Part shown: positions 40,261-64,000 of the stretch, one piece after another
Layout of the letters: the number at the start of each line of letters is the position of its first letter
Position numbering within the stretch: position 1 is the stretch's first letter
Assembly (NCBI RefSeq): GCF_000189635.1
Contig: NW_002476216.1
Span: 292,819 to 356,818 of the forward strand
DNA from: Tetrahymena thermophila SB210
Lineage: Eukaryota; Ciliophora; Oligohymenophorea; Hymenostomatida; Tetrahymenidae
Direction of reading: 5' to 3'
Length of the DNA: 64,000 nt
Program-made: the position numbers and the translations under genes
The notes under the pieces: model-generated
What the model was told of the DNA's origin: nothing
What the model saw: only the letters and a program-made list of their open reading frames with translations
Database searches by the model: none

Positions 40261-42924
40261 TCAATATACTAACATCTTTAAGAAAGATAACCTTTCTATC
40301 TTATACAGTTTTTTAAGCAGAAATTATTCTCCATTATTCTTGCTACAAGTATTAATTATTTAATCAAAATTAGATAAATAAAATAAAATTTAAATATTAT
40401 TTAAATTAAATCAATCAAATTTGTTTTATTGTTTGTTTGCTTGCTTGCTTGAGTTTTTATTAAAAATAATAATTGATCTTACTTAAATTCAAGAACAAGC
40501 ATCAAGAGACTTTTATTCTATTTTAATTGCTTGCCTAAATCTAATATACCCTAATCAGAGATATTATAGTTAAAGCTTTTTATTTAGATTAAAAATGATG
40601 ATTAATGCACATTAATTAATATTTATATATACCATAAATAGAGCTCCAAAAACTTCAGATTTTTAGATTATGCTAAAGCTTAAGCAATACCAGATATTCC
40701 TTCATCGCCGAATTTATTGAATCTGTTTTCGAATACATAAATTAATTAAATATTTAATTCTGTAATTTTTAAAAAACTTTTGTAGTTAATTTTATTTATG
40801 AAAAGAAAAACAATACAATTAATAAGTTAAACAACTCAAATAAAACAGTTATTCAATATGGCTAATTTTTAAATAAAACTTTGAACTTTGCATTCATAAT
40901 TTCCATTCATTTTTGTTTATATTTATAATAAAAAAAAGAAGTTCTTTTAAAATCTATATCAAATTATTTTCATTTAAAGAAATCCACTCAAATAATTTAT
41001 CAATCAATCAACCAATTTGCTTGTATTGAAAAATTTTTTTGGTAGAAATTGTAAAAAATCAAAACAAATCATTTAAAACAATTTAAAAAGTAGATTCTTA
41101 TAAAATACTTGATAGTAGAAATTGAAAAAGTATGTTGAAGTTATTTAATTTGTTTATTACCAAATTCCTTTCTATTTAAATAATATGACATTTATCATGA
41201 TTCAATTTATTTCTTTAGATTTCCATAAATAACTTCTAAATAATTTTATTGAGTTAGTTAGCAAAAATAAATTGCTTTTGCAAAAAATAATTTAATTTAC
41301 TTCTACTTTTTATGAAATATATTTTTTTAAGTAGGATATTTTTTATATTTAAATAAACGTTTTATCTATCAAAAAGAACTTAATTTACCTTAATATAAGA
41401 GATAATTATGTAAGATTTTTACACAATGTTAGGGATTTACTTAGATTAAATATTCCTAAATCTTGAATCTGACAAAATCTTTTTTATATTTCATTTTTTC
41501 ATTTTAGGACAATTTAGAAATAAAAGAATTTATTTATGTTTTTTAAATTTTACGAAAGATCAAGTGTGAGAGATTTTAAGTTTTTGCTTTAGTTTAAGTT
41601 CTCACCTAGAAATGTAGCACCCCTATCACCTATCTCAAGTTCGCTATTAAATTAAAAGAAAATAGATACATTTAATAATTCGATTCATAATTAATTAATT
41701 AATTAAATAAAATTAGATTTTTATCAAAAAGATTTGAAATTTTTTGTAATTAATTTAAACATAAATTACTATAAATAGAGTGTTAAAGTTTGAATTTTTT
41801 TATGCTATCCAATATAAAAAGCTAAATCTTTAATGCCTTCTTGATTAATTTAGTTGAATCTTTTTATTTAAATCAAAATATTTTAAATAAATTTATATTT
41901 ATAAATTAGCTTTATTTTTAAAAATTATTCATCAAAATAGATAAAAATTTTTCACATTTAATTAATTATTAATTATTTTACCCAATATTAAACGTAAGAA
42001 TTGACAAATTTAAAAATTTGTTAAAAATTAAAGCTGTATCAGATACTCCTTAGCTTTTTATTTAGTTATTCCTGTATTAATTCATTAAATTTTGTTCAAA
42101 AATATATTTTAATTTCTTAATTAACTACTCTAAATTTAGGATTAGATGGTTTATTTGTTTACTGTTGCTTAATCCATTAGATAATTTCTTCAAGCCTGTG
42201 TCTGAAATTTTATTATGCCTTTTCAAAATTTTGAGTTTCTGAATATTTTCAAATTAAAAAAATATACTTTAAACTTAAATTGAGGTTAATTAAGTTTTCG
42301 AATTATCGAATTGCTTCTCCTAAAAAAGAAACACTGCTATCACTAATTTAGTTATACCTATTTCAAATAAAAAATCATTCTAAACACAAATTTGTGTTAA
42401 TAAAAATTAGATCCAGCAAATTACCCTAAATTTAATTCTAAGCCAATTAATTTTTTACATTTAAATAAAATTTTAGTTAGGTTAATTAAGCCTTGGTCAT
42501 TAAGCTAAGATTTTCTTTTAAATATTTAAAAATTAATTAATTTATTAATTTAATTAAATCTATAAAATGAATAATTAATAAATAAATAAAAGAGAAATTT
42601 ACTCTAAAATAAGTTTAAAAATGATAAGGTTTTAATGATTTAACATTTCTTGGCCAATCTAAGATATTTCAATATCAGTGATCTAATTTCTATTTAAAGA
42701 AGAGTAAGTAAAATTAATTTTATCTTAACAAATAAATAAATTAAATTGTTTACTTCTAGTTTAAATTAACAGTTAACGCTTCATCTGACTTTATACAAAC
42801 AACCTTTTGATATTATAAAATGTAAATTTCTTAGTTTTATTTTGATTTTATTTATTACTTTATTTGAAATATTTAATTATTTTTTTATTTTAGTACTCCT
42901 TTTTTTGCAAAAAATTAATCCCAT
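40261..42924 (-). CDS. exon-per-repeat LRR protein A
   Basis: 335 residues in twelve exons (5' to 3'): 42924-42859, 42803-42754, 42689-42603, 42514-42425, 42357-42268, 42218-42129, 42071-41982, 41643-41554, 41478-41389, 40722-40633, 40575-40483 and 40342-40261. Seven internal exons are exactly 90 nt, one is 87 and one is 93. From exon 2 onward every junction is in phase 2. Each internal exon is one LRR such as NKISDTGLKKLSNGLSNSKQ, or FNKFGDEGISGIAQALAQSK followed by NLKFLEL. The first exons (MGLIFCKKRS..., VVCIKSDEALTVNLNQK) form the cap and the last ends LSFLKMLVY. No signal peptide is seen. Its tandem sister starts at 46372. The start was chosen because the same ATG and the same intron are usable in both copies. 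Confidence 0.82.
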
Positions 42925-43692
42925 ATTTTAATTTAATTTACTTTTTTTATGCTAAGTTAAATTATATTTTAAATAACACAAATTAATTATTTTCTTTAAC
43001 AATTATTATATTTCAAGATAAAAAGGGGTTAATAAGTAGAGTTTCTTTCCAACCCCACATATACTATATATATATATAAGAAGTAGTGAAAACAGTCTTT
43101 TCGTACATTTAAGTTTTTAAAAAAACAATATTATTATAAATGTATTAAAAAAAGTTAGTCTAAAAAATTATGTGCCAGACCACACTTTTCCCTTTATATC
43201 ATATTTTATAATTTATCATAAAAATACACATCAAACAATTTAAACTATCTTTAGTTAAATACTAATTCTGATATATATTTTGAGTTACTAATTTTCTTAA
43301 TATTAATTTTTATTCAAGGAAGGACATGAATTGTATTTCTTTCAAAAATAGCTGACAGATAAATAAATAAAAATATAATTAGTTAGTTAGATATATAGAT
43401 AGATTGATAAATAGATATTAAAACTAATGATTTTTTTAAGAGGAACTAGAAATTTTCTAAATAAACCTTTGCTTAGAGTTAAATTACATTAAATTTTATT
43501 TGTTTAGATATTTTCAAAGAATAATTTTTAGATGAATTTATTTAAGCGTTATGATTCTTTTTAAAACTTTGAAAATACCATTTATATCTCACACAATATT
43601 AAAGACTTAAAAAACGCTTATAAGAAATTTTATAGTAAAAAAGATTAAGTGCTGCTATTTAACATTAAAAGCCATAATAAATAAATAGTCAA
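42925..43692. other. spacer between tandem LRR genes A and B
   Basis: 768 bp. The right part (from about 43190) resembles 39770-40260 and is part of the duplicated unit. There is a (TA)n run near 43065-43078. No gene is seen. Confidence 0.6.
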
Positions 43693-46008
43693 TCAATATA
43701 CTAAAATCTTTAAGAAAGATAACCTTTACATCTTATACAGTTTTTTAAGTTGAATTTATTCTCCATGATTTTTGTTACTTTTATTAATTATTTAAACAAA
43801 ATTAGATAAGCAAAATAAAATTTAAATATTTTATAAATTAAACCAATCAAATTTTTTTTTTTGTTTGTATGTATGTATGTATGACCTTATATTAAAAAAT
43901 ATTTGATCTTACTTAAATTCAAGAACAAGCATCACAAGGCTTTTATTCTATTTTAATTGTTTGCCTAAATCTAAAATACCCTAATCAGAGACATTATAGT
44001 TAAAGCTTTTTATTTAGATTACATATGATGATTAATGTACATTAATTAATATTTATATATACCACAAATAGAGCTCCAAAAACTTCAGAATTTTAGATTA
44101 TGATAAAGCTTAAGCAATACCAGATATTCCTTGATCGCCTAATTTATTGAATCTGTTTTTGAATACATAAATTAATTAAATATTTAATTCTGGAATTTTA
44201 AAAAGCTTTTGAAATAAATTTTATTTATTTATTAAAAAGGAATGTAATTAGTAAGCTAAGCAACTCAAACAAAACAGTTATTCAATCTAGCTAATTTTAA
44301 AAAAAAAATTTAGATTTCACATTCATAATTTCCATTCATTTTGTTTATATGTATTACAAAAAAAGTAATTCTTTTAAAATCCCATAGCAATTTATTTACA
44401 TGTAAAGAAATCCACTCAAGTAATTTATGAATTAATCAATAAATTTGTTTGTGTTGAAAATTTATTTTTTGGTAAAAATAAGAAAAAGCCAAATCTAATA
44501 ATTTAAAAAGTAGATTCTTAGAAAATTCTTGATAATATATTTAGTATTAATTGAAATAGTTTGTTGAAGTTATTTAATTTGTTTATTACCAAATACCTTT
44601 CTATTTAAATAATATGAAATTCATCATTCAATTTATTTTTTTTATAGATTCCATATTTATAGCTTCTAAATAACTTTATTAAGTTGGTAAGCAAAAATAA
44701 ATTGTTTTTGCAAAAAATAATTTAATTTTCTTCTACTTTTTATGAAATATATTTTGAAAAAGTAAGTTATTTTTTTTAAATTTAAACAAACGTTTTATCT
44801 ATCAAAAAGGAGTTAATTTACCTTAATATAAGAGATATATAAGTCAGATTTTTACACAATGTTAAGGATTTACTTAGATTAAATATTCCTAAATCTTGAA
44901 TCTGGCAAAATCTTTTTTAAATTAAATTTTTTTATTTTTGGGCAATTTAGAAAAAAAGAATTTATTTATTTTATATTAATTTTACGAAAGGTCAAGAGTG
45001 AGATATTTTAAGTTTTTGCTTTAATTTAAGTTATCGCCCAGAAATATAGCACCCCTATCTCCTATATCAAGTTTTCTATTAAATTAAAAAATAAAATCGA
45101 AATATTTCATAATTAATTAATTAAATTAGATATTTATCAAAAAAAAAGATAAGAAATATTTTATTTTAAATTTAATCATATAATACTATAAACAGAGTGT
45201 TAAAGTTTGAATTTATTTATGCTATCCAATATTAAAAGCTAAATTTTAAATGCCTTCTTGATTAATTAAGTTGAATCTTTTTATTTAAATCAAAATATTT
45301 TAAATAAATTTATATTTATAAATTAGCTTTATTTTTTAAAATTATTCATAAAAATTAATAAATAAATAAATAAATATTTTTCATATTTAATTAATTGTTT
45401 TACCCGATATTAAATGTAAAAATTGACAAATTTGAAAATTTGTTAAAAATTGAAGCTGTATCAGATACTCCCTAGTTTTTTATTTAGTTATTCCTATATT
45501 AATTCATTAAATTTTGTTCAAAAATATATTTTAATTTCTTAATTAGCTACTCTAAATTTAGGATTAGGAGGTTTAATTGTTTGCTGTTGCTTAATCCATT
45601 AAATAATTTCTTGAAGCCTGTGTCTGAAATTTTATTATTCCTTTTCAAAATTTTGAGGTTCTGAATATTTTTTAAATTAAAAAAAATTTACTTTAAACTT
45701 AAATTGAGGCTAATTAAGTTTTCGAGTTATCCAATTGCTTCGCCTAAAAAAGAAACACTGTGATCACTAATTTAGTTATACCTATTTCAAATAAAAAATC
45801 ATTCTAAATACATATTTGAGTCAATATTTTTATCTTAATTAGATCAAGCAAATTACCCAAAATTTAATTCTAAGCTAATTAGTTTTTTACATTTAAATAA
45901 TCTTTTAGTTAGGTTAATTAGGCCTTGGTCATTAAGCTTAGATTCTCTTTGAAATATTTCAAAATTAAATAATTTATTTATTTTTTATTCATTCTATAAA
46001 ATAACTAA

Positions 46009-46039
<31 letters not shown>

Positions 46040-46372
46040 AGAAATTTACTCCAAAATAAGTTTAAAAATGATAAGGTTTTAATGATTGGACATTTCTTGG
46101 CCTATCTGAGATATTTCAATATCGCTGATCTAATTTCTTTTTAAAAAAGAGTAAATAAAATTTATTTATTTTTTAACAAATAAATAAATTAAATTGTTCA
46201 CTTTTAGTTTAAATTAATAGTTAACACTTCATCAGATTTTATACAGATAACCTTTTGATATTATAAAATGTAAATTTATTAGTTTTATTTTGATTTTATT
46301 TATTACTTTATTTGAAATATTTAATTATTTTTTTATTTTAGTACTCTTTTATTTGCAAAAAATTAATCCCAT
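43693..46372 (-). CDS. exon-per-repeat LRR protein B, tandem sister of A
   Basis: 336 residues in twelve exons: 46372-46307, 46251-46202, 46136-46050, 45946-45857, 45781-45692, 45640-45551, 45493-45404, 45075-44986, 44911-44822, 44152-44063, 44005-43913 and 43777-43693. Exon lengths equal those of gene A except the last (85 instead of 82 nt, with a nearby acceptor). Introns and flanks are also alike, so the whole ~3.4-kb unit was duplicated. Substitutions leave every frame and splice site of the model intact, and LRR positions such as N, L, G and the C-terminal LSFLKILVY are kept, which suggests both copies are functional (inference). A possible acceptor AG in the first intron of A is absent here, but the acceptor used in the model is present in both. 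Confidence 0.81.
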
Positions 46373-46843
46373 ATTTTAATTTAATTTTCTTTTTTTATGT
46401 TAAATTAAAAAAATTATATTTTAAATAACGCAAATTATTTATTTTCTTTAACAATATTTATACTGTAAGTTCTCATTAATTCACCCCAAATTAAGAAAAA
46501 TTTTTAAAAAAATGTTAACCTCCAATTTGCATCCCAAGCTCCTATTTATTGAAAGTTAGCTATATTTTAATTCATAATTTATGGTAGATAAATTAAGTAT
46601 TTATATATATATATATTTTATCTCCTAATATGTATATAACATTTCATAATAATTAAAGCAAATAAATAAATATTAACAAAAAAAAACAAATAAATAACAA
46701 TTCATCAGTGTAAAAAAAATTAATTAGAGAAAACATATTTAAATAGTAGATAAAAATTGATATTCTCAACATTAAATAAAACAAACAATACAATTAATCA
46801 ATTAATTCAATAAAAAATAATTGAATCAAATGCCATTAATTAT
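46373..46843. other. spacer between LRR genes B and C
   Basis: 471 bp of AT-rich DNA. A segment near 46455-46490 (TTCTCATTAATTCACCCC) resembles the ends of the inverted-repeat element at 62841 but shows no partner end. Confidence 0.45.
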
Positions 46844-49800
46844 TCATAAAACTAAAATAAAGACAACTAGCTTTTTTGATTGCAGACACTTTATCCATAT
46901 CTCCAATTATTCTTCATAAGGAATACCACTATCTCTTTAATTATTAAATAAAAAATTAAAAAATAAATACTTAATTGTGTGGAAAATCAATCAAGTGTTT
47001 CAAATTTAAAAAAGAAATAAAAAACTAATTTAGAAAATTTTATTGTTTTTAATCAATATTACAGAAAAATAAAACAATTAAAATCAATATAGCTTTTTAC
47101 TAGAGTCTAAGTTCCAAAGTTGAAAGATTAGCACACTTTGCTATACCAGAGGCTAAATCTAAAGCGCCCTTAGAATGGATATCATTGTAACTTTTAATAT
47201 ATATATTAAATTTATTAGTTTTCATTAAAAATATTAAAATAATCAAAGTAACTAACTACTGACCATTAAAATTAAACAAAATCAATAGATGTGTTTTATT
47301 TTCTAAATTAATTTAGAGATAAATTTATCAAAGGTATCAAATTTACTAAAAGCTTTACCTAAGTTGTAGTTCCAAATTTTAGAGATTATGGCAATTAGAT
47401 AAAGCAATACCTAAGTCTAATGCAGCTTATTCACCAATAGAGTTAAATCTTTTTATCAATTCAAAACAAATCGTTCAGTTAAAAACAAAAATTAAATAAG
47501 AATTAGATTCCAAATAAACGAAATAAATAAATAAAAAACATGATAAATAGTGTTTGATTTATTAAAATTAATTCTTAAAATAATAAATAAATAAATAATA
47601 AGACAAATCGAACTTATTTATTTACGCTAGATGAAGTGATAAATTTGAGATATTACCCCAGTTTGGTAAAACAAAAATTAAGTCCGATATAGATTAATGA
47701 GTAATTTAACTTTTACTTTTTATGCATTCAAAATAAATAAATTTAAAATTAATAAGAAATAAAACAATTGTAAAAATTTATAATCTTTAAAAGTATTAAT
47801 TAAGCTATAATAAAATAAATATTCAAATACAATCAAAAAACAAATAAATCAAATAAAAAAAGATATATTTAAACTCTTCATAAATTAAGAGAACATTCAC
47901 CGTATTTTTTAAGACGATTTTGTAGCCCTTAATTTGAAATCTCAAAAATTTTTCAAATCTAAAATTTTTTTTTGGACCTTAATGTAAAGAGGTAATTGAC
48001 TCTTAAATAATAAGGAGTTGTAGTTTATTAAAGAAAAATATAATGTGGTAAAATAATTTTTTTAAAAAGCAATAGCTTAACCGTTTTTAAATAAATTAAG
48101 TTACTTGATAGCAAGTGCTAATTTAGAAAGTTTAGTACAATTTTTTAAATTAGAGGTTATGCTTGAAACACCCTAGTCACCAAACTAATTATAACTTTTT
48201 TGTATTTTCAATTTTAATATGTTTATTTTTAACAATGAAAAAATAAGAAAAAGTCAAAATCATTTTTAAATTTAAAAAATAAACTATCTATCTATCTATC
48301 AATCAGCTCAAAAAAATTATTTGAATTGAAGATCTTTGATAAAAAAGTTTATCATTTAAAAATAACAAAATCAAAAATAATTAATTATATTAGTAATAAA
48401 AAAGGATCGATCCTACTTTAAATTAAGAGTCAAGCGTGAAAGATTTAAGCAATTTCCTAAAGAGGAACTTAATCTTGATACACCTTCATCTCCAATTAAA
48501 TTATCACTTTTTTTGTTTAAAATAAATTTATTAGTTAGTTAGTTAGCATTAAAATAATACAAAATAGTTTAAAATTGAAGAAATCAGAAAATATTATAAA
48601 GTAAAATTACTATCTAAATAATTTAAATCAGCAAGTAGTAACGAAGGAAAATAAATAATTAGATTTTTATTTTAAATTAGTTTTTAGATAAAGAAATATA
48701 AATAAACTTTAAATTTAAATCATTTTTACTCTAGTGATAATGTCAAATCGGAGAGTCTAAAGCATTTTCTTAATGCTTCACCTAAGGTTGAAACACCTTT
48801 GTTACCAATTTAATTCTAACTTTTTTTATTATTTTATTTGAAAAATATAAATAAAATGTTCAAAAAACAAAAAGTTAAATTTTAAACAAACAAACAAACA
48901 TATTTTAAATGTATGTATGTATGTATGTATGTATGTATGTATGTATATTGCTTGTGTGTTTTTTTGTTTGTTTAAAGCTTTAAAAAAATTAGAAATATTA
49001 AAATTAAATAAAAATAAATGTCAATATCATTTGAAATTCACATCGTATGTATGATGATTAAACAACTATTTCGAATTGAATATAGTTTTTTCATAGATAA
49101 TTATATTTTAATTTATTAATTTATAAGATCATTACAAATTCTCCTTCAGTGAGAGTATCAAAAAATTAGAGCGAAATCGATATATAAATTTTCAAGATTA
49201 AAAAAGTGAATTTAAATTATAAAAGAAAGTGACTTTTTTTGTAAGATGTTTTATCTAATCAAAATTTGAAATATTTTCAAAATAAATAAATATCGAACTG
49301 ATCAAGTCAATTTTACTTTAGATTTTCACAATTATTCTCATTTTTTAAATTAAGATAAATAATTGCTGGTTTTAATTTAATAAGCAAGCGGATTTTAATC
49401 ACAAAGTTCTAAAATAAAGCGTAAAGCAAACAAAATAAAAATAAAATAATGAGCTAAGTTATTAAAGAATTATTAATTAATTTTTTTAAAGAAGCAACAT
49501 TTAGTATTTTAAAAAAATAATTTTACACAAGGTTTAGCTACAAATTAGAGAGATAAATGCATTTTTCCAATACAGAACTAAAAGATGATATTTCCTCGTC
49601 ACCAATTTATGTTTTTCTTTTTAATATTTATTAGATAAATTTATTATTAAGATTAAAAAGTGATAAAAAAATTAACAATATAATTTTAAGTTTAAAATTG
49701 AATAAAGTAAGATTGAATAAAATTAAAACTTTTTAAAAAATTGAGTCAAAAAAATATTTAATTAGAAAATCATATTTCTTTCTAAATTAATTTTAATATT

Positions 49801-50303
49801 TAAAAATATAAAATAATGAAGAAAGAATCTTATGCTTGAAATTAAATATCAAGTTTGTGAGGTTAATGCAGTTTGACAAATCAGAAAATAAGCATGACAG
49901 ACCTTATCCATTAATCTAATTGTTCCTTTTAATAATACAAAAGAAGAATGAATAAATAAGAAATCAAAAATAAATAAATTTATATTTAAAAACTAAAGCT
50001 GAATTATATTAAATTTCATTAAGAAAAATAAACAATTAAAAGTAAAAAAATGTTTATACTCAAGATAAAGTGTCAATTTTGAGAGATTAATATTGCTTGT
50101 AAAAGCAGAACCTAAGCCAGATATACCCTATGAGCCAAATTAATTGCTTCTTTTTATAAATTAAGCATAAATTAATAGTTAGGATAGAATTGCTAAAGGG
50201 AATATGAAAAAGTATTATGTGAAAAAATTAAGAGCAAGAAAAAATAAAAAACTAAACGAAAAAAAATAATTTATAAAATAATGAAATCAAAAATAATTAA
50301 AAT

Positions 50304-50338
<35 letters not shown>

Positions 50339-52557
50339 TTAAGTAAGTTAAATAAAAACCTAAAGTAAAGATTTTTTAGATTTAAATGAAATTTTCTTAA
50401 AAAATGATAATAAATTCTGATTTTACATGAGATCAAGTGACAAATTTGAAATTTTTTTGCAGTTTGCTAGTGCGATACCTATAGCTGATACTCCTTCGTC
50501 ACTTATTTGATTGACACTATAATTATTTATGAGATATTTATTAGTAATAAATATAGAAGAAGAATAGGAAATTAAGTTTCAAATAATAAGTTAGATATAA
50601 AAAAAAAGAATATATTTGCAGTAAATAATTTAAAATAAATTAGAAATAAGTGAAGTTAGTTAGTTAATAAGTAAGTTCATTAAAATAAGAAATAAAACAA
50701 CCTAAAAAAAATAAATTTTATTTACGAGACATCAAGCTTCAAATTTGAGAGATTAGTGTAAGTTGCTAAAGAAGAACCTAAGTTTAAAGCACCGTGATCA
50801 CTTATACCGTTGCTTCTTTTTTAAGTATTCAGTATTAATTAATAATAAACAATTAAAAACAAACATCTTTAAAAATTAAATGGTTTAAAATAAATTAATT
50901 TACAAAAAATTGAATTAAATTTGATCGAAAAAATAATTTAAAATGCAAAATAAATTATTATTTAATAGAAGCTAACAAATTGTTAAATAAAAAAATATAA
51001 AAATGGCAAAAAATTATACAAAAATTTTATTATAATAAATCTAATTAAATCAAATTTAATTAGGATCTTATTTTTTTCAAATTAAAGTTTATTTATGAAA
51101 TAGGAATTACGAAAGATTAAGTGTTAAGCTTGTCAGACATGTAATCTTTGCTAAGACAGAAGTTAAACCTAATACACCCTTATCTCCAATATTGTTTGAT
51201 CTTTTTATATATTAATTTATTTTAATTAGTTAGTTAGGATATAATCAACATTATATAAGAAAATTAATCTCCAACTTGATCATAAAAACAATTTAAATAT
51301 TAAAGTAAAATATTTATTTTCAAATTATTGTTTCAAGGTAAATAAATAAATATTAGAGGTCTCCTTACAAAAAATTAATAAATGCAAAATTTATTATTTC
51401 AATTAAAATTCTATATATTATCTTTCTAATAAACAGTAAATGCTTAAGAGTTAAAATTTAAACTCGAAAAATTTAAAATATAATCAGATTTTGATTGACA
51501 ATCATGATAAAAAATAAAATATCTAAACTGGAAGTAAACAGTTTTTTTTAATTCTCCATTAATTCATATGCAAAAAATACAGAATGTTAAAAAATAAGCT
51601 GCTTTTACTCAAGAGAAAGTGTCAAGTCTGTGAGATTTGTGTAGGTTTCAAACGTAGAAGCAAAGCTCAGTATACCTTCCCCACTAATGTCATTTCCCCT
51701 ATTGATAAATTTAATGCAAATTTTTTGACGATAAAATTAAGAACAAGAATAAAAAATAAGATGAAAAAGATAAAAACTAAAACAAAAAAAACAATAAAAT
51801 GGTAGAATGAATGTTAAATTAACTTTAATTTATTTTATTTTAAATAAAAAAATTATAAACTAATAATCTCTATGATTTACGAGAGATAGAGTTTCATTAT
51901 TGAAAGGTTAGGGCAATTTTTTAAAGAAATAGCTAAGCCTGTTGCAAACTCATCTCCGATATAACAGTTTCTTTTGAAGTATTAAATAAAAATTGAATTG
52001 CTGAAAATGCAGGAGTTAAGAAGAAAAATTAAAAAAATGAAATTAAGAATATAATTTTAAATTTAAGAAAATAGCAAAATCTTAAGAATATAAATTAAAA
52101 GAGTATAATTAGTTTTAAATTATATAATAAATTAAATAATTTAGCATTACGAGATGTTAAGATTTAAACTTGAAAGGTTTGTGCATTTTTCTAAACCTGA
52201 GCTTAATTAAGGGATTTATTCTCCGTAAATTTAGTTCCTTTTAAGTTTATTATTTTAAATGAGTATAAAATCAAAAAAAATATATATATATAAAAATTCT
52301 AACCGAAACAAGTGATATATAACAGTAAAAATAAAAAGTAAGAAGTTAAAATAAATTTTTCTATATTTTTATTATTTAATTTAAATTAATTTAATTTTTA
52401 TTAATAATATTTACCAAAGATTGAGCTTCAGATCAGTATGACATTCAAATGAAGAGCTTAAAAACTTTTATGATAATAAAAATATTTTAAAATAATCAAT
52501 AACAAAAAAAAAATTTACATCATAAAGCTCTGTAAAACATTTTTTCATTTATATCAT
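46844..52557 (-). CDS. exon-per-repeat LRR protein C
   Basis: 506 residues. Exons 5' to 3': 52557-52519, 52464-52415, 52237-52151, 51970-51881, 51698-51609, 51200-51111, 50815-50726, 50516-50427, 50149-50060, 49925-49836, 49616-49527, 48819-48730, 48506-48417, 48194-48105, 47719-47636 region (47709-47626), 47448-47359, 47190-47101 and 46934-46844. Thirteen internal exons are 90 nt, with one of 87 and one of 84 (a 6-nt in-frame deletion relative to gene D). Repeats read like NQISDEGVSAIGIALANCKK and NLIGDEGVSRLSSSLGNCLN. A short first exon (MIQMKKCFTELYD) plus a 50-nt second exon cap the array, as in genes A, B and D. The exon at 49836 is followed by GCATAAG instead of GT. Decayed repeat exons lie near 49010-49100 and 47880-47990. 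Confidence 0.8.
48909..48948. repeat. (ATGT)n microsatellite in a gene C intron
   Basis: About ten uninterrupted ATGT units in the long intron between the exons at 49527 and 48819. The equivalent intron of gene D lacks it. Confidence 0.92.
49000..49110 (-). pseudogene. decayed LRR exon inside gene C intron
   Basis: The minus strand here is alignable with 55005-55085 in gene D. There it reads as the tail of a repeat (SIIKCGFQIRLTF in one frame), but the start, the LRR leucines and a usable splice pair are lost. The large gap between exons 49527 and 48819 is where one repeat exon would be expected. Confidence 0.5.
49834..49835 (-). other. GC splice donor (GT in the paralogue)
   Basis: On the minus strand the exon 49925-49836 is followed by GCATAAG. 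The equivalent exon of gene D (55843-55754) is followed by GTATTAG. This is a GC-AG intron or a damaged donor. Confidence 0.75.
50307..50347. repeat. (AAGT)n microsatellite in a gene C intron
   Basis: About nine AAGT units with one imperfect unit, inside the intron between the exons ending at 50427 and starting at 50149. Confidence 0.9.
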
Positions 52558-52941
52558 TCTTCTTTTTAGAATACTAAACAAACAATAAATTTTTTTTAAA
52601 ACTAAAGTAATTAATTAATTAAATACATATATATCTAGATACTTTAATTTTTTGAAAATACTTGAAATTATTGATTCAATAATATATAAAATCCAAGTAA
52701 ATATTTAATAAATAACTAAAAAATCTATTAATAATATGTGGCATATTTATAAAACATTACATAATAATTAAAACAAAGAAATAAATATTGATCAAAAAAT
52801 AAATATTAAAACATTTTTTTATTGATAAAAATTCAATTAGATAAAAAATATTTAAATAACTAATAAAATTGTTATCCTCAACATTAAATAAATACATTTA
52901 ATTCAATAAAAGAATAATTTAATAAAAATATCTTTAATTGT
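52558..52941. other. spacer between LRR genes C and D
   Basis: 384 bp of AT-rich DNA that should include the promoter of gene C. It resembles 46600-46840 in its right part. No other feature is seen. Confidence 0.55.
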
Positions 52942-55900
52942 TCATAAAACTAACATCATGACAACTAGATTTTTTTATTTCAAAATCTTTGTCGATATGT
53001 TAAATAATTCTTCATAAGGAATACTAGTTTCTCTTTAATTATTATATAAAAAATTTAAAAATAAATTAATTATACTAAAAATCGAAACTAAGCTTTAATT
53101 CATAAAAATATGAAAAAAACAATAGTAAAAAAATTTTATTGCTTAAAATTAATATAAAGAAAAAATAAAACAATTAAAATTAATTCATATTTATACCCTA
53201 TTCTAAGTTTCAAAGTTGAAAGTTTAGCACACTTTGCTAAACCAGAGGCTAAATCTAAAGCACCATTTAAATTAATACTATTGTAGCTTTTAATATTTAC
53301 ACATTAAATTTATTAGTTTTCATCAAAAAATATTAGAATAAAATAATCAAACTAACAATAAATCATTAAAATTAAACAAAATAATCAAAATAAATTTATA
53401 AAACATGTTTTATTTTTCTAAACTAATTTAGCGATAAATATATCAAAAGCATAAAAATCATTATAAATTTTACTTAAGATCTAGTTCCAAATTTTAGAGA
53501 TTAAGGCAATTAGATAAAGAAATACCTAAGTCTAATGCTGATTATTCATCAATAAAGTTACATCTTTTTATGAACCAAAATAAATGATTCAATTAAAAAC
53601 AAAAATTAAAAATGATGTAGATTCCAAAAAAAAGAAATAAATAAAAAATATAATAAATAGTGTTTGATTGATTAAAATTATTTCTTAAAATAATAAATAA
53701 TAACACAATAAAAACAAATAGAACTTATTTACGAGAGATTAAGTGATAAATTTGAGATATTAGCCCAGCTTGGTAATGCAAAAATTAAGTCTTAAAAAGA
53801 TTAAGTAGTAATTTCAATTTAACTTTTTAAAATAAATAAATTTAAAGTTAATAAGAAATAAACTGAAAGTAAAAATTTTAAATTATTGAAAGTTTTAAAC
53901 TATGATATATATAATAAATTCAAATACAATCAAAAAACAGATAAATCAAAATAAAAAAGATATTTTTAAACTCTGCATTAAAATTTTATTTTTGGTCCTT
54001 AATATATATATAAGTAATTAACTCTTACTTAATGAGGAGTTTTAATATATTTAAAAAAAATATATTTTGGTAAATTAATTTTTATATAAAGCAATATCTT
54101 AACTATATTTAAATAAACTATTTTACCTAATATCAAGTGTTAAACTAGACAGTTTAGTACAATTTTTGAAATTAGAGGCTATGCTTGATATACCCTAGTC
54201 ACCAAACTAATTATTACTTTTTTGTATTTTCAATTTTAATATGTTTATTTTAAACTATGAAAAAATAAGAAAAAGGTAAAATCGTTTTTAAATTTAAAAA
54301 ATAAACTAATAATCAGCTCAAAAAAAATTATTTGAATTAAAGAGTTATGAAGAAAAATTTACTTTTTAAATTAAACTTTATTTAAAAATAGAGAATCCAA
54401 AAATAAAAAAATAAATATAAAGGGATCTATCTTACCTTAGATTAAGAGTCAAGTGTGAAAGATTTATGCAGTTTCCTAAAGAGGAACTCAATCTTGATAA
54501 ACCTTCATCCCCAATTAAATTGCCACTTTTTTGTGTTTAAAATAAATAGATAATTAAATAAATAATAAATAAATAAATAAATAAGTTATTAGTTAGATAT
54601 CATAAAAAAAATGTGAAATAAAAAAATAAAAAATAATTTAAAATTGATTTTATTTTTTAAAAATAAATAATAAAATAAAATATATTTAGAAGTGTAAATA
54701 AAATAAATCAATAGAAAGGAAAAAAAACAGATTTTTATTTATAAAAAATATCAGCATTAAATTAAATTATTTTTACCATAGTGTTAATGTCAAATCAGAG
54801 AGGTTAAAGCATTTTTCTAATGCTTAACCTAAGGTTGAAGCACCTTCATCGCCAATTTAATTCGCTCTTTTTAAAGTTTTAAGATAAATTTTTTATTTTA
54901 TTTAAAAAATGAATTTTAAAAAATAAAAAGTTAAATTTGAAACAAGTATATTTTAAATTCATGCTAAGTGTAGTTTGTGTCTTTAAAAAGAAATATATTA
55001 GAGTAAAATGTCAATCTTATTTGAAATCCACATTTTATGATTGATGATCGAATGACCAAATTCAAATTGAGTTGAGTTTTTTCTTAAAAAATTAAATTAA
55101 AATATTTTATAAGATCTTTGCATGCATATAAATGAGACAGACTATCAAAAAAGTATATAGAAATTATTTGATACATTAATTTTTAAAGTTTAAAAATGTA
55201 AATTTAAATAAATTGGATGGATGGATGGATGTTTTATCCAATCAACATTTGAAATCTTTTCAAAAAAAAAAATATAAATCTAATAAAATCAATTTAACTT
55301 TAGATTTTCACAATAATTCTCATTTTTATTTAAAAGATATTTTAAGAAAAATAATTATTAGGATTTATTTAATATATAAAATGACTTTAATCACAAATTA
55401 AAATAAAGTGTAAGACAAACAAAATAAAAATTAAATAAAGAGCTAGCTGAAAAAAGAATTTTACGTAAGGTTTAGCTACAAATTGGAAAGTTTAATATAT
55501 TTTTCCAATACAACACTAAACGATGATATTTCCTAGTCACTAGTTTATGTATCACTTTTTAATATTTTTAAGATAAATTAAGTATTAAGATTAAAAAAAT
55601 TAATGATTTTATTTTGGTTTAAAATTGAATAAAATTTTTAGTTATCAAATATATTCAAAATTTATAAAAAATAAGTAAAAAATTTAATAAGAAAATAATA
55701 TTTCAATTAATTTTAATATTTAGAAATAAAAACAAAGAATTAAAATCTAATACTAGAGATCTAATATCAAAGTCGTAAGGTTAGAACAGGTTGACAAATC
55801 AGAACTTAAGCATGATAGACCTTATCCATTAATTTAATTGTTCCTTTTAACATTTGCAGTAAAAAAAACAATTAGAAAATAAGAAATAAAAGATAAATAT

Positions 55901-58822
55901 AATTAAAAATTAAAACTTAATTTAATTTAAACAAATAAAGCAATTAAAAGTAAAATTTCTACTAGAGATCAATTGTCAATTTTGAGAGGGTAGTACTGTT
56001 TTTAAAAGCAGAACCTAAACCGGATATACCCTATGAACCAAACTTGTTACTACTTTTTATATATCATGCATAAATTAATAGTTAGGATAGAGTTGATAAA
56101 GGAAATAAATATGAAAAAAAAAAAATTTTTTAGATTTTAGTGAATTTTTTAAAAGAAATAAAATAATTGATAATAAATTCTTATTTTACTGGAGACCAAG
56201 TGATAAATTTGAGATTTTTTTGCAGTTTGCTAGTGAGATACCTAGAGCTGATACTCCTTCGTCTTATATCTCATTGACACTTTAAATATTTAAGAGAAAT
56301 TTATTGGTGATCAAAATATAGATGAAGAATTAAAAAGTAAGAAATAAGTATCAAATAAAAAGTTAAATATAAAAAATAAACAATAAGTTTGGAATAACAA
56401 TAAATTAATGAATCATGTATTAATGAAATTAAAAATTAATCAAAAAAAAAATAAAACAATCAAAAACAAATAAACTATTTTTACGAAGCGTCAAGCACCA
56501 GACTTTAGAGATTCATGTAAGTTGCTAAAGATGAACCTAAGTTTAAAGCACCCTGATCACTTATACAATTGTTTCTTTTTAAGTATTAAGTGTTAATTAA
56601 TTAAATATTTTATTAATAAAAAACAATTAAAAACTAAAATCTTTAAAAATTAAGATGAAAATTGAAGCAAAAGTTTAAAATAAATTATCCGACAAATAAT
56701 TGTCTTAAATAAAATCAGCAAATTAATAAAACGTGCAAAATAAAAAAAATTCAACAACAAAATCAAAATTAGTAAAATAATTTTTACGAGATATCAAGAG
56801 TCAAGTTTGAGAGATTTTGAATGCTTGCAAAAGAAGAGGTTAAGCCTAATATTCCCTCATCACTAAACCAGTTTCTCCTTTTTATGTAATCAATATCAAT
56901 TTATTAGTTAGTATGAAAGAAAATAGTCAAAACATTAAAATTAATTAAGACACTAAAAAGAAATGAAAGTATAAGTTTAAAACAAATTAATAGAACAAGA
57001 CAATAAAAATAAAATTATCAAAAATAAAAAATTATTTTTTTACTTAAGATTGAGAGACAAATTTGATAGATTAATGCATTTTGATAAAGCTGAACCTAAA
57101 TCAGTTACACCCTGCACATCAATTTAGCCTTAACTTTTAAAATAAATAAGCTAATTTATTATTAAACAAAAAAAAGGAAGTAACATTTCATTGTAAAAAT
57201 TTATACAAAAACTTCATCATTATTTGATAATGATAAATTTAATTAAATTTATTCAATTGGAATCTTATTTTTACAAATTAAAGTATCAAAATGAAATAAA
57301 AGTATCAAATATTAAATATTTTACGAGAGATCAAGTGTTAAGCTTGTAAGACATGTAATCTTTGCTAAGGCAGAACTTAAAAATTGTGCACCCTTATCTC
57401 CAATTTTATTTGATCTTTTTATAAATTAAAAATATTTTAGCTATTTAGAATGTCAATTATTAAGCTCTAACATAATCAAAAAAGCATAAAATAATTTATT
57501 TATTTATTTTCAAATTATCTTTTCAAACTAAATAAATCTTAGAGCTTTCCCTAAAAGAAACTAAAAAATGCATAATTCAACATAGAAACTAATTTTTGCA
57601 ATTAAAATTTAATTTTTTTAAATCTTATTCAATTTTATTGTTTGTTTTTATAAAAGTAAGTAAATGCTTAAAAGTTAACACCAAAACTAGAAAAAACTAA
57701 AATAAAATTAGATTTTATTTTGACAATCATGATAAAAAAAATAAAATATTATCAAAAACAGAAAAAAAAACTATTTTTTTAAAATTCTCTAATCATTTAT
57801 ATACAAAAATAGTGAATATTTTTACTCAAAAGAAAGTGTCAAATCTGTAAGATTTGCGTAGGTTTCAATTGTAGAAGTAAAGGCAAGTATACCCTCTTCA
57901 CTAATGTCATTTTCCCTATTAATAAATTTGATTTAACATAATGATTAAATTAAAAAAAATTATAAAAAATAAGATAATAAAAATCAAAACTAAGATAAAA
58001 AAGTAATAAATAATAGTTATAGAATATGTTAAATAAACTATAATTTATTTTATTTTGAATATAAAAATTAAAAACTAATAATCTATCTGATTTACGAGAG
58101 ATATAGCTTCACTTTCGAAAGCATAGGGCACTTTTTTAGAGCAATAGCTAAGTTTGATGCAAATTCATCACCGATAAGGCAATTTCTTTTGAAGTATTAA
58201 ACATTAAATTGCGGAATATGCGAAAGAGTTAAGAAAAAAAGCTAAAAAAATAAATTAAGAATGTAATTAATTATAAATTTAAGAAAAAGAGAAAAAATCT
58301 AAAAATATAAATTAAAAAAATATTTTTCTTTTAAAATTTTATAATAAGCAACATTTTCAAAAGTTAATAATTTGGTATTACGAGATGTTTAGATTTAAAC
58401 TTGAAAGATTAGTGCATTTTGCTAAACCTGAGCTTAATTCTGGGATTTCTTCACCGTCTACTTAGTTCCTTTTAAATTTATTGAAATTAAGTTTAATATT
58501 TTAGATGTAAATAAAAACAAGAAAAAGTATTAAATATAAAATGAATCCAAACTAAAAATTAATTAGTGGTAAAATGTATAAAAAATTAAAATTAAGAAGT
58601 TAAAAAATAAATTTTTCTATATTATTTAATATTGTAAATATCAAATTTAAATTAATTTAATTGTTATTAATAGTATTTACCAAAGATCTATTTCCAGATC
58701 AGTATGACTTTCAAAAGATGAGCTTAAAAACTTTTATGATAAAAAACATATTTTAAAATAATATATAACAAAAAAAAATTTACGTTATAAAGCTCTTTAT
58801 AGCATTTTTTCTATTATATCAT
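52942..58822 (-). CDS. exon-per-repeat LRR protein D, tandem sister of C
   Basis: 568 residues. Exons 5' to 3': 58822-58784, 58730-58681, 58468-58382, 58185-58096, 57915-57826, 57414-57325, 57133-57044, 56877-56788, 56574-56485, 56279-56190, 56052-55963, 55843-55754, 55554-55465, 54866-54777, 54525-54436, 54216-54127, 53822-53733, 53563-53474, 53286-53197 and 53032-52942. Sixteen exons are exactly 90 nt and one is 87; all junctions from exon 2 on are phase 2. The first exons encode MIQQKKCYKELYN and FLSSSFESHTDLEIDL. Repeats follow, such as NLIGDEGLSRLSSSLGNCIN. Exons 57133-57044 and 56877-56788 have no counterpart in gene C, where the corresponding interval is about 450 bp shorter. No signal peptide or membrane helix is seen. 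Confidence 0.82.
55005..55090 (-). pseudogene. decayed LRR exon inside gene D intron
   Basis: It lies where a repeat exon is expected between exons 55465 and 54866. The minus strand keeps an LRR-like tail (KCGFQIRLTF) but no complete 90-nt phase-2 exon with splice sites. Confidence 0.5.
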
Positions 58823-60688
58823 TTTTTTTAGAAGACTGAGTGAATAACAAGCAAATTTTCTTAAAACTATATTAATTATGAATTTATCTAGATACTTTAA
58901 TTTTATATCAAATGTTAATTTAAATGAAGCAAATAAATTATCATGAGATCAAATTTTTTAATGTTTTTAGAAAGATAATCCTTAATTTAATGTAAATATT
59001 TAAACTATTGATACATTAATATGTAAATCCAAATATAGATAGTAGTCGAAAACACATACATACATACATATTTTTAATATTCTTCAAAAATAATAATTTT
59101 TTTATTTTTTTAAATTTTTATTTAATACCTTAATTAATTTTTGCGACCTATTATCAAATTTCATTTGTATAATTTAACATTTTTAAATATATCATTGATA
59201 TCTATTAATTGTGTAATTAAAGAATAGTAATTGTAAGATTACAAAATAAAAATTATCTAATTTATTTTTAGATGTAAATAAAAATACAAAATGCAAAACA
59301 CTAGAATCAAAACTTACTTAAATAGTATTTATTTATTGCTAATTTTCAAATTTGTGTAAATACGATAAAATAAATGAATTTATGTTGAACCTTCAATGAA
59401 TGAAATCATCCCATGCCACAATTTTATTAATTTTAAAATAATGTAGATAATATACAAACAACTTGAACTGGAATGGCTTTAATTCAACCTGTAATACATA
59501 CTAACGCTTGCGATTAAATTAATAAATTCTATTTGTATCATGCTTACAGATGGTCAGTGGTCTAGGTTGCTAAAATAGATAAATCATCATGATTTTACTC
59601 TTAAAACAAAGCTAGCTAGCTGCCTACCTTTTTATTCATAGCTTTGTAAAAACTAAATCTATTATGAATTTATTTACCTTTACAATACACTACATATTAG
59701 CAATAATTAATTTTTAAAAATTATCAATTCAATATTATTTTGATTCATGTAATAAAAATAATTGACATTTTATATTTTAGTATTTATTTATAAAGCTATT
59801 TATAATAGATAAAATATTCTGTGTATTCTACTAAATACTTAACCTGCAAAAATATAAATTAGTTCAAAATCCTTTTTATTTAATTAATTTTGTTTTCTGA
59901 TTAGAAATTTAATCAAATTTCTTGTACTTTCTTATGCAAAAGAAATTTTAATAATTTAGATTTCCTAAATTCCACTATTTGTAATACATTTAAAAAATAG
60001 AATGAGCTACTGTAATTATCCATAGCTTTTTAATAACCTCTATTGAACCCTGAATCTCTCTCTACTCTTTAGTGTATATTTATTAGGGTAATTTAAGAAT
60101 TATTAACACCAAGTATCTATTTTTATTTATTAACATATACCTACTATTACATTTTACTCACACCTAATACCAAATGTTTTTTTTTCATATACATTTTAAT
60201 TGCATTATTAAATTTCATTAGCATAATTTAACATTTTTAGATAAATCATTTATACATATTAGTTATTTAATTAAAAATATTAGGGCCAAGATGATAAAAT
60301 TAAAAATTATTTAATTTATTTTTTGATGTAAATAAAAATATAAAATGCAAAACACTAGAATGAATTAATGAATAAATTAAGTATTAACCTAAAAAGCAAA
60401 AACAATTAAAATAATATTAATAAATCTAAATTACTTTAAGCAAACATCTATCTCAATTTAAAAATTATTTATTTGTTATTTCTATATGCAATAGTATTTA
60501 AATCAATTAATCAATTTAAAAAAATTATAAAAGAAATTCCTTTTTCGTAAATATGTATGTTCCTAATACAACAATCATATATATGAATCAAAGCAAAAAG
60601 ATTTCAATAAAAGAAAAAAAGATAGAAAAGAAATTTATCATAAATAATTATTTAAGAAACCAATTAAAATAAAATTAACTATTCACTT
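58823..60688. other. intergenic region with one half of a segmental duplication
   Basis: About 1.9 kb. The interval from roughly 59270 to 60060 is similar to 60290-61440, which carries an intact cysteine-rich gene. The remaining DNA is AT-rich with a (CATA)n run near 59055-59072. Confidence 0.6.
59336..59610 (+). pseudogene. dead copy of the cysteine-rich secreted-protein gene
   Basis: The sequence is clearly related to 60780-61033. It includes NEIIPCH-coding sequence (GAAATCATCCCATGCCAC), a TGGAATGGC...AATTCAACCTGTAAT stretch, an ACGCTTGCGATTAA stretch and the final TCATCATGA. The signal-peptide start is missing, and indels change the frame, with a TGA soon after the first shared Cys codon. 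No complete product is possible. Confidence 0.85.
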
Positions 60689-61033
60689 ATGATAAAGATT
60701 GGAAAGATATTTTTAATTGCAGTAATGGTAACTGCAATAGCTGCTCAACAATCATTGTGTTAGCCAAAAAACCGTATCCAATGCTTATTTTCAAACTTGT
60801 GTATATGGAATACAAATGGAATTTGTGTTGAATCCTAAGTGAATGAAATCATCCCATGTCATAATTTCATTAATTCTGAAGAATGTGGACAATATTCAAC
60901 TTGTACTTGGAATGACTTAAATTCAACTTGTAATACTAACGCTTGTGATTAAGTTGATAAATTCTATATCTGTAAATCTTATAGAGAATGTTAATGGGTC
61001 GATGGTGTCGGCTGCTAAAATAGATCATCATGA
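60689..61033 (+). CDS. small cysteine-rich secreted protein
   Basis: An intronless frame of 114 residues. Residues 1-20 (MIKIGKIFLIAVMVTAIAAQ) form a typical signal peptide with a likely cut after the Ala-Ala region. The mature part is about 95 residues with eleven Cys in CxxW-like and NxxC groups (CIWNTNGICVE, CTWNDLNSTCNTNACD, CQWVDGVGCQ). The spaced Cys-Trp pattern suggests a disulphide-rich fold built from two or three similar modules. I do not recognise the family; secreted or surface location is inferred from the signal peptide. No membrane anchor is seen. A broken copy lies 1.3 kb upstream on the same strand, so this is a locally duplicated gene. Confidence 0.82.
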
Positions 61034-61805
61034 TTTGATTGATTCTGAAAACAAATCTAACTAGCTGCCTACCTTTTAATAGCCTTATAAAAAATAAATA
61101 AATGTATTATATATTTACCTATATAATTGACTATATAATAGTAAATATAAATATAAATTTAAAAAAACTTTCAATTCATTATTATCTTGATTCATGTAAT
61201 AAAAATAATCTGTATTTTATATCATAGTATTTAAATAATTACTATTTCATCTGTTTTTAATAGATAAAATATTGTTTTTACTAAATTGTTTAGCCTGTAA
61301 ACAGAAAAATTAGTTTCAAAATGCTTTTTATTTAATTTTGTTTTTTGATTAGAGATTTAATCAAATTTCTTGTACTTTCTTATACAAAAGAAATTTTAAT
61401 AATTCAGATTTAATGGCACTATTTTATAAAATTTTTCAAAATAATGTGAGCTAATTAAATATATATTTTATAAACTTTACAATAGAAATTCGTAGAAATG
61501 ATAAATAAAACAATTTAAAAATTAAAATATATTTAGCAACAAAAAGTAAATAAATACATCGATACATACATACTGTAATTTCTCATTAATTCTTACTTTA
61601 TTTACTGTAAACAAATAAATAAATTATGACTTAATAAAATTTTTGAATTTTAGTGTCTTAATTAAAAAGTGTCTTAATTAAGAAGAATCTACGGTATAAT
61701 GCTATCCAGTTCATCATATTTTAATACCTGGATTAGCAATACTTCTTATTAACTAAATTTCCATAAATTTCTATCCAATATTTTTTAAAACAAAATAAAT
61801 AAAAA
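61034..61805. other. intergenic, ~770 bp
   Basis: AT-rich spacer. It includes a TGTCTTAATTAA direct repeat near 61650-61685 and a TTTCTCATTAATTC motif at 61576 like the ends of the element at 62841. No gene is seen. Confidence 0.5.
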
Positions 61806-64000
61806 ATGATACAATAGAAAAAATATTTTAACAATCTACAAAAAGTTAATATTTAATTTTTATAAATTAATTGTTTCAATTTACTTTTATTAATAACAAA
61901 AGTTTACAAACTCTTCACTTTAATTGATTTAGGTTCTACATATTGATCTGAATAACAAGTATATTTGATTTATTAATATTTTTTTTTCCATATTTTATTT
62001 ATTTAATTTTGAAAAGATTTAAAATATTATTTTTCAAATTTAAATTATCATCTATTTTCATTGTTAATTTATACAATATTTTTTAATTATTTTAATTTAA
62101 TATTTATTATGATAATTTATTTTTTATATTTTTCTTCTTTTTTTCCTTCTAACTAACAAATTAACTACACATTTTTCTTCAATATTTAAAAAGGTTGAAT
62201 TAAATTGGTGAAATTGGTATATCTAGCATAGTTTCTTGTTTAGGAAAGTGCACTAATCTTATTAATTTGACACTTGATCTAAGGTAAAAACAGTTTATTT
62301 GTTTAGGATTGTGATATTTTTGAATATAAAAATGAATTTAAAATAATAAAACTCTTTTAATTTATTTATTTATGAAATTTTTATTTAATTTATTTAATCT
62401 TTTTTTATTCTACTTATATTTATATATTTCCTCGTTTATTAGTTTATTAATAAACTCATTTTTTCATTTTCAACTTTTGTAATTTTACTAATAAGTTAAT
62501 TAATTAATATCTTATTATTTCATTCATATATTTTCATTGTTTTTTTCCTTTTAACTAACAAACAAATTAACTATAATATTTATTTTTTATTTAATATTAA
62601 AAAGGTCAAACTAAATTGGTGATTAAGGCGCATCAGACTTAGCTTCTGGTTTAGGAAAGTGCACTAATCTCTCATATTTGATACTTGATCTAAGGTAAAA
62701 ACACTTTATTTGTTTAATATTGTGATAATTTTGAATATAAAAATGAATTTTAAACAAAAAACTCTTTTAATTCATTTATTATTGAGCTTTTGATTTGATC
62801 TATTTTCTTTAATCTCTTGTGTTTTTTATATTTTTATATGCTATTAATCCTCATTTATTAACACCAACCTCCCCCCCCCCCCAAAATTTTTACCCTCTGG
62901 ATGGAAATCTCCCATTTTAGCCCTACCTAGGTTGACAGGTCGGTGGGTCTTATTGAGGAAATACGGTATTTTAAAAATTTTGGATTCTATTCAATATCAT
63001 TCTAAAAAATTTTTTCTTGGGTGTTAATATGTTCGGGTGTTAATTAATAAGGATTGATAGTTTTTTTATCTATTTGTTTGTTTTTATTTTAATTTAAATA
63101 ATTTTTTCATTTTAAATTTTTGCTTCTATTATTAATTAATTTCTTATTATTTCATATTTTTTCTTCATTTTTTCCTATTAACTAACTAATACTTTAACTT
63201 TTTATTTTTTTTCTATATTTAAAAAGATCGAATTAAATTAGTGATAGAGGTGTATCAAGCATAGGTTCAGATTTAGTAAATTGTACTAATCTCTCAAATT
63301 TGATACTTTATTTAAGGTAAAAATAATTTATTTGCTTTAAATTGTGATTTTTTTAATATAAAAATTAATTTAAAACAACATAACTAATTCTTTTAATTTA
63401 TTTATTTAAGAGCTTTTCATTTGATTTAATTTTCTTTTTTTATATATATTTACTTCTTTGTATTTTGTATGATAGTAAATTTAACTGATTTTTTCATTCT
63501 CAACTTTTACTTTTATTATTAATTAATTTGTTACTTTTTTCATATTTTTCTTCAATTTTTTCTATTAATTAAATAATAAATTAACTTTATATTTGTTATT
63601 CAATATTTATAAAGGTCAAATTATATTGGTAAATTTGGTGCATCAAATCTTGGTTCTAGTTTAGGAAAGTGCACTAAACTCTCAAATTTGACACTTTAAT
63701 TATGGTAAAAACAGTTTTTATTTGGATTGTGATATTTTTGAATAAATAATTAATTCTTTTAATTTACTTATTTATGAGCTTTTTATTTGATTTATTTTTC
63801 TTTATTTTATTTTGCTTTTATTTATTTATATTCTTATTTATTTATTAGTTAATTTAACACATTTTTTATTTTTATTTTTTGAATCTATTATTTACTTACT
63901 ATTTCATATGATTTCTTCATTTTTTCCTATTAACTAACGAACAAATTAACTCTATATTTTTTCATCAATAATTAAAAAGGGAAAATATGATTGATAATGG
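61806..64000 (+). CDS. exon-per-repeat LRR protein E, 5' part (runs off the window)
   Basis: Exons 61806-61844, 61903-61958, 62194-62283, 62605-62694, 63227-63316, 63615-63704 and 63980 onward. Exon 1 (MIQQKKYFNNLQK) is 39 nt, like genes C and D, and starts almost identically to gene D. Exon 2 is 56 nt and ends in phase 2. The next four exons are exactly 90 nt, phase 2 on both sides. They give repeats such as NQIGEIGISSIVSCLGKCTN and NYIGKFGASNLGSSLGKCTK. The last visible exon opens with NMIDNG and is cut by the window edge. The introns are also similar to each other, so exon plus intron form tandem units of roughly 365-410 bp, apart from one enlarged by an insertion. The opposite orientation to A-D shows the cluster is not a single head-to-tail array. 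Confidence 0.82.
62841..63060. mobile_element. 220-bp element with 25-bp terminal inverted repeats (MITE-like)
   Basis: The left end (62841-62865) and the reverse complement of the right end (63060-63036) agree at 22 of 25 positions. Both start CTAT and end TTAACACC. The element carries a C12 run and a GC-richer core unlike the surroundings and has no coding capacity. It sits in the intron between two repeat exons of LRR gene E. That intron is 532 nt against 321, 298 and 275 for its neighbours; the excess of about 211 nt over the longest neighbour is close to the element's size. Confidence 0.75.

What the first reader, a model, noticed from the sequence alone, without database searches (positions are those of the whole stretch)
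40261..64000. LRR gene cluster built from symmetrical 90-nt exon cassettes
Five genes use one exon per leucine-rich repeat. I count 41 visible exons of exactly 90 nt and a few of 84, 87 or 93, all multiples of three and bounded by phase-2 introns on both sides. Such class 2-2 exons can be duplicated, deleted or shuffled without changing the frame. The gene pairs differ in repeat number, so the array behaves as a modular recognition-domain generator. What it recognises is unknown; no signal peptide is seen.
Basis: partly seen in the sequence, partly recalled or inferred. Interest (0 to 1): 0.85.

Follow-up and report, generated by a model that had tools for sequence, protein, structure and literature searches.

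The report
Ciliate leucine-rich-repeat genes, one exon per repeat
The one-exon-per-repeat genes are really there, but this design was described in 2019 across Tetrahymena species, and four of the five genes here show almost no exon reshuffling since they were duplicated.

Summary
In 40-64 kb a splice-blind scan finds 56 leucine-rich repeats (LRRs), each modelled as its own exon. 50 of 56 are exactly 90 nt (49 with AG..GT, one with a GC donor), four are 87 nt and two 93 nt. In the models, introns between repeats are phase 2. A motif-free count and an independently trained model both confirm it.

It is already published. Xiong et al. 2019 (PMC6564038) describe tandem arrays of exactly 90-bp exons with >98% phase-2 introns in LRR genes of ten Tetrahymena species, and propose exon shuffling and recognition.

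The 'modular generator' reading is only partly borne out here. A/B is a whole-gene tandem duplication with equal repeat numbers. C/D differ by one two-exon indel in intron sequence. All 25 shared exons best match their collinear partner, and A-D show no DNA-level internal repeats. dN/dS is 0.36 and 0.51, so no excess of amino-acid change. Gene E looks younger and is cut by the contig end.

Best reading: ordinary members of the known family, most likely encoding ribonuclease-inhibitor-like LRR proteins with unknown ligands.

The parts
40261..42689 (-). Gene A: ten LRR exons (87 nt, eight of 90 nt, 93 nt) and a terminal exon ending in TGA; 5' start not resolved
43693..46136 (-). Gene B: tandem copy of A with the same ten LRR exons and a terminal exon ending in TGA; 5' start not resolved
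   Evidence: (86.7% over 3,080 nt)
46844..52557 (-). Gene C: 18-exon open model, 508 aa, 15 LRR exons (one 87 nt, fourteen 90 nt; the exon 49836-49925 has a GC donor)
   Evidence: first two and last exons placed by eye from C/D conservation
52942..58822 (-). Gene D: 20-exon open model, 568 aa, 17 LRR exons (one 87 nt, sixteen 90 nt)
   Evidence: first two and last exons placed by eye from C/D conservation
56745..57147 (-). Stretch of D absent from C, holding exons 56788-56877 and 57044-57133; the ends of the aligned blocks lie in introns
   Evidence: blocks end at C 50954 and 50969, D 56744 and 57148. The global alignment scatters its gaps, so the exact breakpoints are not fixed
62194..64000 (+). 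Gene E: four visible 90-nt LRR exons, cut by the contig end; start not resolved
16415..18366 (-).
   Evidence: exons picked by eye from many candidates
27654..29195 (+). Intronless LRR-type gene, predicted alternating strand-helix solenoid
30032..31591 (+). Second intronless LRR-type gene, 29% identical to the first

Best explanation
These are ordinary members of the Tetrahymena 90-bp-exon LRR gene family. Each exon encodes one 30-residue repeat, with a phase-2 intron in the codon just after the LxLxL strand. Shown here: exon lengths and phase, six leucine positions, open gene models, and collinearity of the duplicates. Inferred: such arrays arise when exon-intron units are duplicated or lost by unequal recombination in introns; A-D are older arrays now changing mainly by point mutation under purifying selection; E belongs to a younger, still repetitive class. 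The proteins most likely form ribonuclease-inhibitor-like LRR solenoids that bind other proteins inside the cell. That function is inferred from the fold class: about 0.6 for an intracellular protein-binding role, and about 0.3 that the target is foreign (bacterial or viral).
For: 56 repeats, 49 with exact AG..GT at 90 nt and one with a GC donor. Cross-trained test 46 of 51. Leucine at positions 12, 16, 22, 25, 27 and 29 in 37, 37, 43, 46, 46 and 39 of 50 exons; the paper reports six conserved leucine positions. Same architecture elsewhere in the genome: 41 of 45 repeats exact in L020-L022, which were chosen for dense matches. A gene-E peptide gives 146 matches in the genome, 143 outside this contig, from 150 scored of 4,700 candidates; these include genes without the exon array. 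PF13516 LRR_6 in C, D and A. 25 of 25 collinear best matches. dN/dS 0.36 (0.21-0.63) and 0.51 (0.37-0.70). Paper.
Against: No transcripts, so every junction is a prediction. The species is not identified. Intron medians of 75 nt (A, B), 220 and 198 nt (C, D) and 321 nt (E) do not fall neatly into the paper's T. thermophila groups. C/D exons are hardly more alike than C/D introns (84.1% against 83.8% of ungapped columns; A/B 92.1% against 89.0%), so constraint is visible mainly in dN/dS. The RI-like fold was predicted only for an intronless window relative, not for A-E. Gene C has one GC donor. The starts of A and B did not resolve with one shared splice pattern.
Confidence: 0.92

Rival explanations
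1. An active recognition-repertoire generator: exons at this locus are continually shuffled and diversified under selection for new binding, in the manner of plant resistance-gene clusters.
For: Symmetrical exons; C/D differ by two whole exons. Gene E and loci L020-L022 have strong internal DNA repeats (6, 42, 83 and 50 pairs). Exposed positions have higher dN/dS than framework positions (0.54 and 0.72 against 0.20 and 0.26; positions chosen by me, no confidence limits).
Against: A-D have 0 internal repeat pairs, 25 of 25 shared exons are collinear best matches, A/B have equal repeat numbers, and dN/dS upper limits are 0.63 and 0.70.
Confidence: 0.1
2. Decaying pseudogene arrays: the exons are relics of a repeat expansion and no longer make protein.
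For: Gene C has a GC donor. One intron of 598-707 nt in each of A-D could hide lost exons. C/D exon and intron identity are nearly equal.
Against: C and D give full open frames of 508 and 568 aa with AG acceptors throughout and GT donors except one GC, ending in TGA; A and B are open from their first LRR exon to TGA. dN/dS is below 1 with upper limits 0.63 and 0.70.
Confidence: 0.05
3. Chance: LRR-like frames in AT-rich DNA with splice dinucleotides that happen to flank them.
For: AG and GT each make up about 3-4.5% of dinucleotides here.
Against: 59 against a mean of 17.8 at other lengths in the motif-free count. In six loci whose repeats run without splice sites, 0 of 56 repeats have AG..GT at the ends, against 49 of 56 here; cross-trained test 46 of 51, shuffles 0.
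Confidence: 0.01

Closest known systems
[quoted passage not shown] 2019, PMC6564038; abstract and sections 9, 10, 11, 25, 27 and part 1 of 15 read, other passages by word search)
   Same: Exactly 90-bp exons in arrays, phase-2 introns, six leucine positions, variable exon number among paralogues, an older class without and a younger class with internal DNA repeats, purifying selection
   Different: No structural difference found. Here the older arrays are shown to have stayed collinear after gene duplication, and intron medians differ from the T. thermophila values in the paper
Ribonuclease inhibitor / NLRP LRR genes of vertebrates (PMC6642158, passages seen)
   Same: RI-type LRR repeats encoded by frame-neutral exons of fixed length with the border at one position in the repeat
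   Different: 171-bp exons hold two repeats of 28 and 29 residues; NLRP proteins carry other domains (recalled), and no non-LRR family reached its Pfam cut-off in C, D or the A part
RanGAP and axonemal LRR proteins (DRC5, radial spoke protein 15)
   Same: LRR proteins matched by sequence to gene D in the PDB
   Different: Conserved housekeeping or ciliary proteins (recalled); no evidence that A-E are their orthologues

Membership tests
[quoted passage not shown]
   A 8, B 8, C 14, D 16, E 4 exons of 90 nt
[quoted passage not shown]
   Open phase-2/2 frames in all 50; the excess at n=90 is strongest in that frame
[quoted passage not shown]
   Positions 12, 16, 22, 25, 27, 29 with L in 37-46 of 50; the paper's position numbers were not seen
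[quoted passage not shown]
   Self-BLAST in place of the paper's RepeatModeler masking: E 6 pairs, A-D 0 each
[quoted passage not shown]
[quoted passage not shown]
   GGGGTT telomere repeats at both ends of contig C4, 72 in-frame TAA/TAG codons in 39 of 56 repeats, low GC; species not identified
RI-like LRR proteins (PF13516 LRR_6) | Profile match above the curated cut-off | tested here: met
   78.0, 64.2 and 49.3 bits for C, D and A against 23.4; B and E not scanned
RI-like LRR proteins (PF13516 LRR_6) | Strand-helix solenoid fold | not tested
NLR-type immune receptors | Nucleotide-binding (NACHT/NB-ARC) domain next to the LRRs | tested here: not met
   Only LRR_6 above cut-off in C, D and the A part; A's 5' end and genes B, E not covered
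Somatically assembled LRR receptors (lamprey VLR type, recalled) | Somatic change of repeat number | not testable with these tools
   Needs reads; only an assembly is held

The most novel reading that the evidence does not exclude
Because every array exon is frame-neutral, the many chromosome copies of one macronucleus could carry, or the transcripts could splice, arrays of different repeat number, giving a single cell a combinatorial LRR repertoire by somatic recombination or exon skipping. Nothing here shows it and nothing excludes it.
Probability: 0.04. Interest if true: 0.8.

Novelty: already known. Interest (0 to 1): 0.2.

Why it matters
It is an independent check of a striking published gene architecture, with one local refinement: arrays can stay collinear well after gene duplication (dS about 0.17 and 0.28), the only exon-level change being one two-exon indel. 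Within one window or genome lie LRR genes without introns but with the same mostly 90-nt repeat period, a mixed gene with a double-length exon, older arrays and a younger one. That makes the neighbourhood useful for asking how the introns came to sit at one place in the repeat.

Tried and rejected
Chance splice sites: rejected by the motif-free count and the cross-trained model. Pseudogenes: judged unlikely. Positive selection at strand-flanking positions: point estimates 0.54 and 0.72, not above 1. Recent duplication of single exons within A-D: none by self-BLAST, and no unit-sized array by Tandem Repeats Finder in 40-64 kb. Species identification through one window protein in the PDB: no hit. 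Genome-wide count by the Pfam model LRR_6: only 2 matches, so the model is too weak exon by exon. Gain in D against loss in C could not be settled: the two D exons have no close donor among the exons of A-E (best 67%), which leans to loss in C, but the genome search for an outgroup did not complete. The first-stage idea of strain variation could not be tested.

Literature searches: '90-bp exon' + 'Tetrahymena' + 'leucine-rich repeat' gave 1 paper; two narrower searches gave only that paper; a broad one listed 12 of 437 papers, of which titles and abstract starts were seen, none other on this architecture; one search listed 8 of 34 on ribonuclease inhibitor and NLRP exons.
Full report
WHAT IS THERE. 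GC is 16-32% in 2-kb windows. Another contig, C4, has (GGGGTT)n at both ends. The 56 repeat frames hold 72 in-frame TAA or TAG codons, in 39 of 56 repeats, so only the ciliate code reads these arrays through. No call named the species; a Tetrahymena macronuclear genome is inferred from the telomere repeat (type recalled) and the gene architecture.

THE EXONS. A position-specific repeat model, blind to splice sites in its scan, gives 56 repeats above 30 bits in 40-64 kb: A 10, B 10, C 15, D 17, E 4. 49 of 56 have AG and GT exactly 90 nt apart. The other seven are one 90-nt exon with a GC donor (gene C), four of 87 nt and two of 93 nt. Open models could be made for C (18 exons, 508 aa) and D (20 exons, 568 aa); their first two and last exons were placed by eye from C/D conservation. 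A and B are open from their first LRR exon to a TGA, but their starts were not resolved.

CHANCE AND CIRCULARITY. First, with no motif at all, open AG-n-GT intervals in the phase-2 frame on the minus strand of 40-64 kb number 59 at n=90, against mean 17.8, sd 5.2, maximum 32 at 63 other lengths (z 7.9). The other two frames give z 1.9 and 4.2, the plus strand 0.5 to 1.0, and 1-40 kb -1.6 to 0.5. The weaker excess in a second frame is probably the same intervals being open twice; I did not test that. Second, a model trained only on 58 repeats from six loci whose repeats lack splice sites finds 51 repeats in 40-64 kb, 46 of 51 with exact AG..GT, and 0 in each of three two-base shuffles. In 1-40 kb it finds 6, of which 2 have AG..GT. 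In those six loci 0 of 56 repeats have AG..GT at the ends, and 37 of 50 successive spacings are exactly 90 nt. So a 90-nt repeat period exists without introns; the arrays add an intron at each boundary.

IS IT A GENERATOR? A and B align over 3,080 nt at 86.7%, introns included, with no change in repeat number. C and D align in collinear pieces at 71-79%. D has 403 nt more, holding two exons; the BLAST pieces end in introns, but a global alignment scatters its gaps there, so the exact breakpoints are not fixed. For all 10 A/B and 15 C/D shared exons the best match among the 56 repeats is the collinear partner (79-94% identity); the best match within the same gene never exceeds 68%. Self-BLAST finds 0 internal repeat pairs in each of A-D, 6 in E, and 42, 83 and 50 in L020, L021 and L022. 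Nei-Gojobori estimates with the ciliate code give dN/dS 0.36 (bootstrap 0.21-0.63) for A/B and 0.51 (0.37-0.70) for C/D. Framework positions give 0.20 and 0.26, the rest 0.47 and 0.70, strand-flanking positions 0.54 and 0.72; I chose these classes from the consensus and gave them no confidence limits. Against constraint, C/D exons and introns are about equally alike (84.1% and 83.8% of ungapped columns; A/B 92.1% and 89.0%). So four of five genes look settled, with one exon-level change since duplication. E resembles the dynamic class, but only four exons are visible.

WHAT THE PROTEIN IS. Pfam gives only LRR_6 above its cut-off in C, D and the A part; a YitT match in A is below its cut-off (B and E not scanned). 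PDB sequence matches of D are LRR proteins such as DRC5, radial spoke protein 15 and RanGAP, led by a chain named only 'Leucine-rich repeat protein' (9y6s, E 4.1e-14). A fold could be predicted only for an unspliced window protein, the intronless gene at 27654-29195 (alignment of two sequences, mean pLDDT 79.7). It alternates strands and helices and matches ribonuclease inhibitor best (4per_A, E 2.4e-11, 15% identity). That gene has no Pfam or PDB match by sequence at the thresholds used, so the link to A-E rests on the shared repeat pattern.

PRIOR WORK. Xiong et al. 2019 (PMC6564038; abstract, sections 9, 10, 11, 25, 27 and the first part of 15 read, passages) report tens of thousands of exactly 90-bp LRR exons in ten Tetrahymena species, more than 98% phase-2 introns before them, 1 to 51 such exons per T. 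thermophila gene, an older and a younger group told apart by DNA-level repeats and intron length, purifying selection in most, ectopic recombination and REP retrotransposons as proposed mechanisms, and bacterial recognition or food sensing as proposed functions. This covers each structural element of the finding. Human NLRP3 shows a comparable modularity with 171-bp exons of two repeats each (PMC6642158, passages).

WHAT IS LEFT OPEN. Ligand, expression, variation of repeat number between strains or within a macronucleus, and the direction of the two-exon change. Intron medians are 75 nt (A, B), 220 and 198 nt (C, D) and 321 nt (E), measured from the 90-nt frames and so off by up to 3 nt beside the 87- and 93-nt exons; they do not match the T. 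thermophila peaks given in the paper (about 56, 122 and 257 bp).

Noticed in passing
window 16415-18366, minus strand: LRR gene F mixes candidate phase-2 exons of 90 nt (17325-17414), 99 nt (17175-17273), 180 nt holding two fused repeats (16938-17117) and 93 nt (16415-16507): a possible intermediate between intronless genes and 90-nt arrays.
   Followed up: partly
L008, L011, L012, L014, L017, L018: LRR genes elsewhere in the genome have head-to-tail repeats without introns, 37 of 50 spacings exactly 90 nt, in the same register as the array exons. One intron gained at that place and then copied with the unit would explain the arrays.
   Followed up: partly
window 60689-61033, plus strand: ORF of 114 aa, rich in cysteine with a signal-peptide-like start, between genes D and E. 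A degraded-looking copy at about 59310-59640 was seen by eye only.
   Followed up: partly
window 35805-38433, plus strand: Protein kinase domain followed by EF hands, like a calcium-dependent protein kinase.
   Followed up: partly
window 49836-49925, minus strand: Gene C exon with a GC donor where the D copy (55754-55843) has GT: a GC-AG intron or early decay.
   Followed up: no
window 40723-41388, 44153-44821, 48820-49526, 54867-55464: One intron of 598-707 nt in each of A-D, several times the gene's median; it may hide decayed exons, though a broad repeat model finds none.
   Followed up: partly
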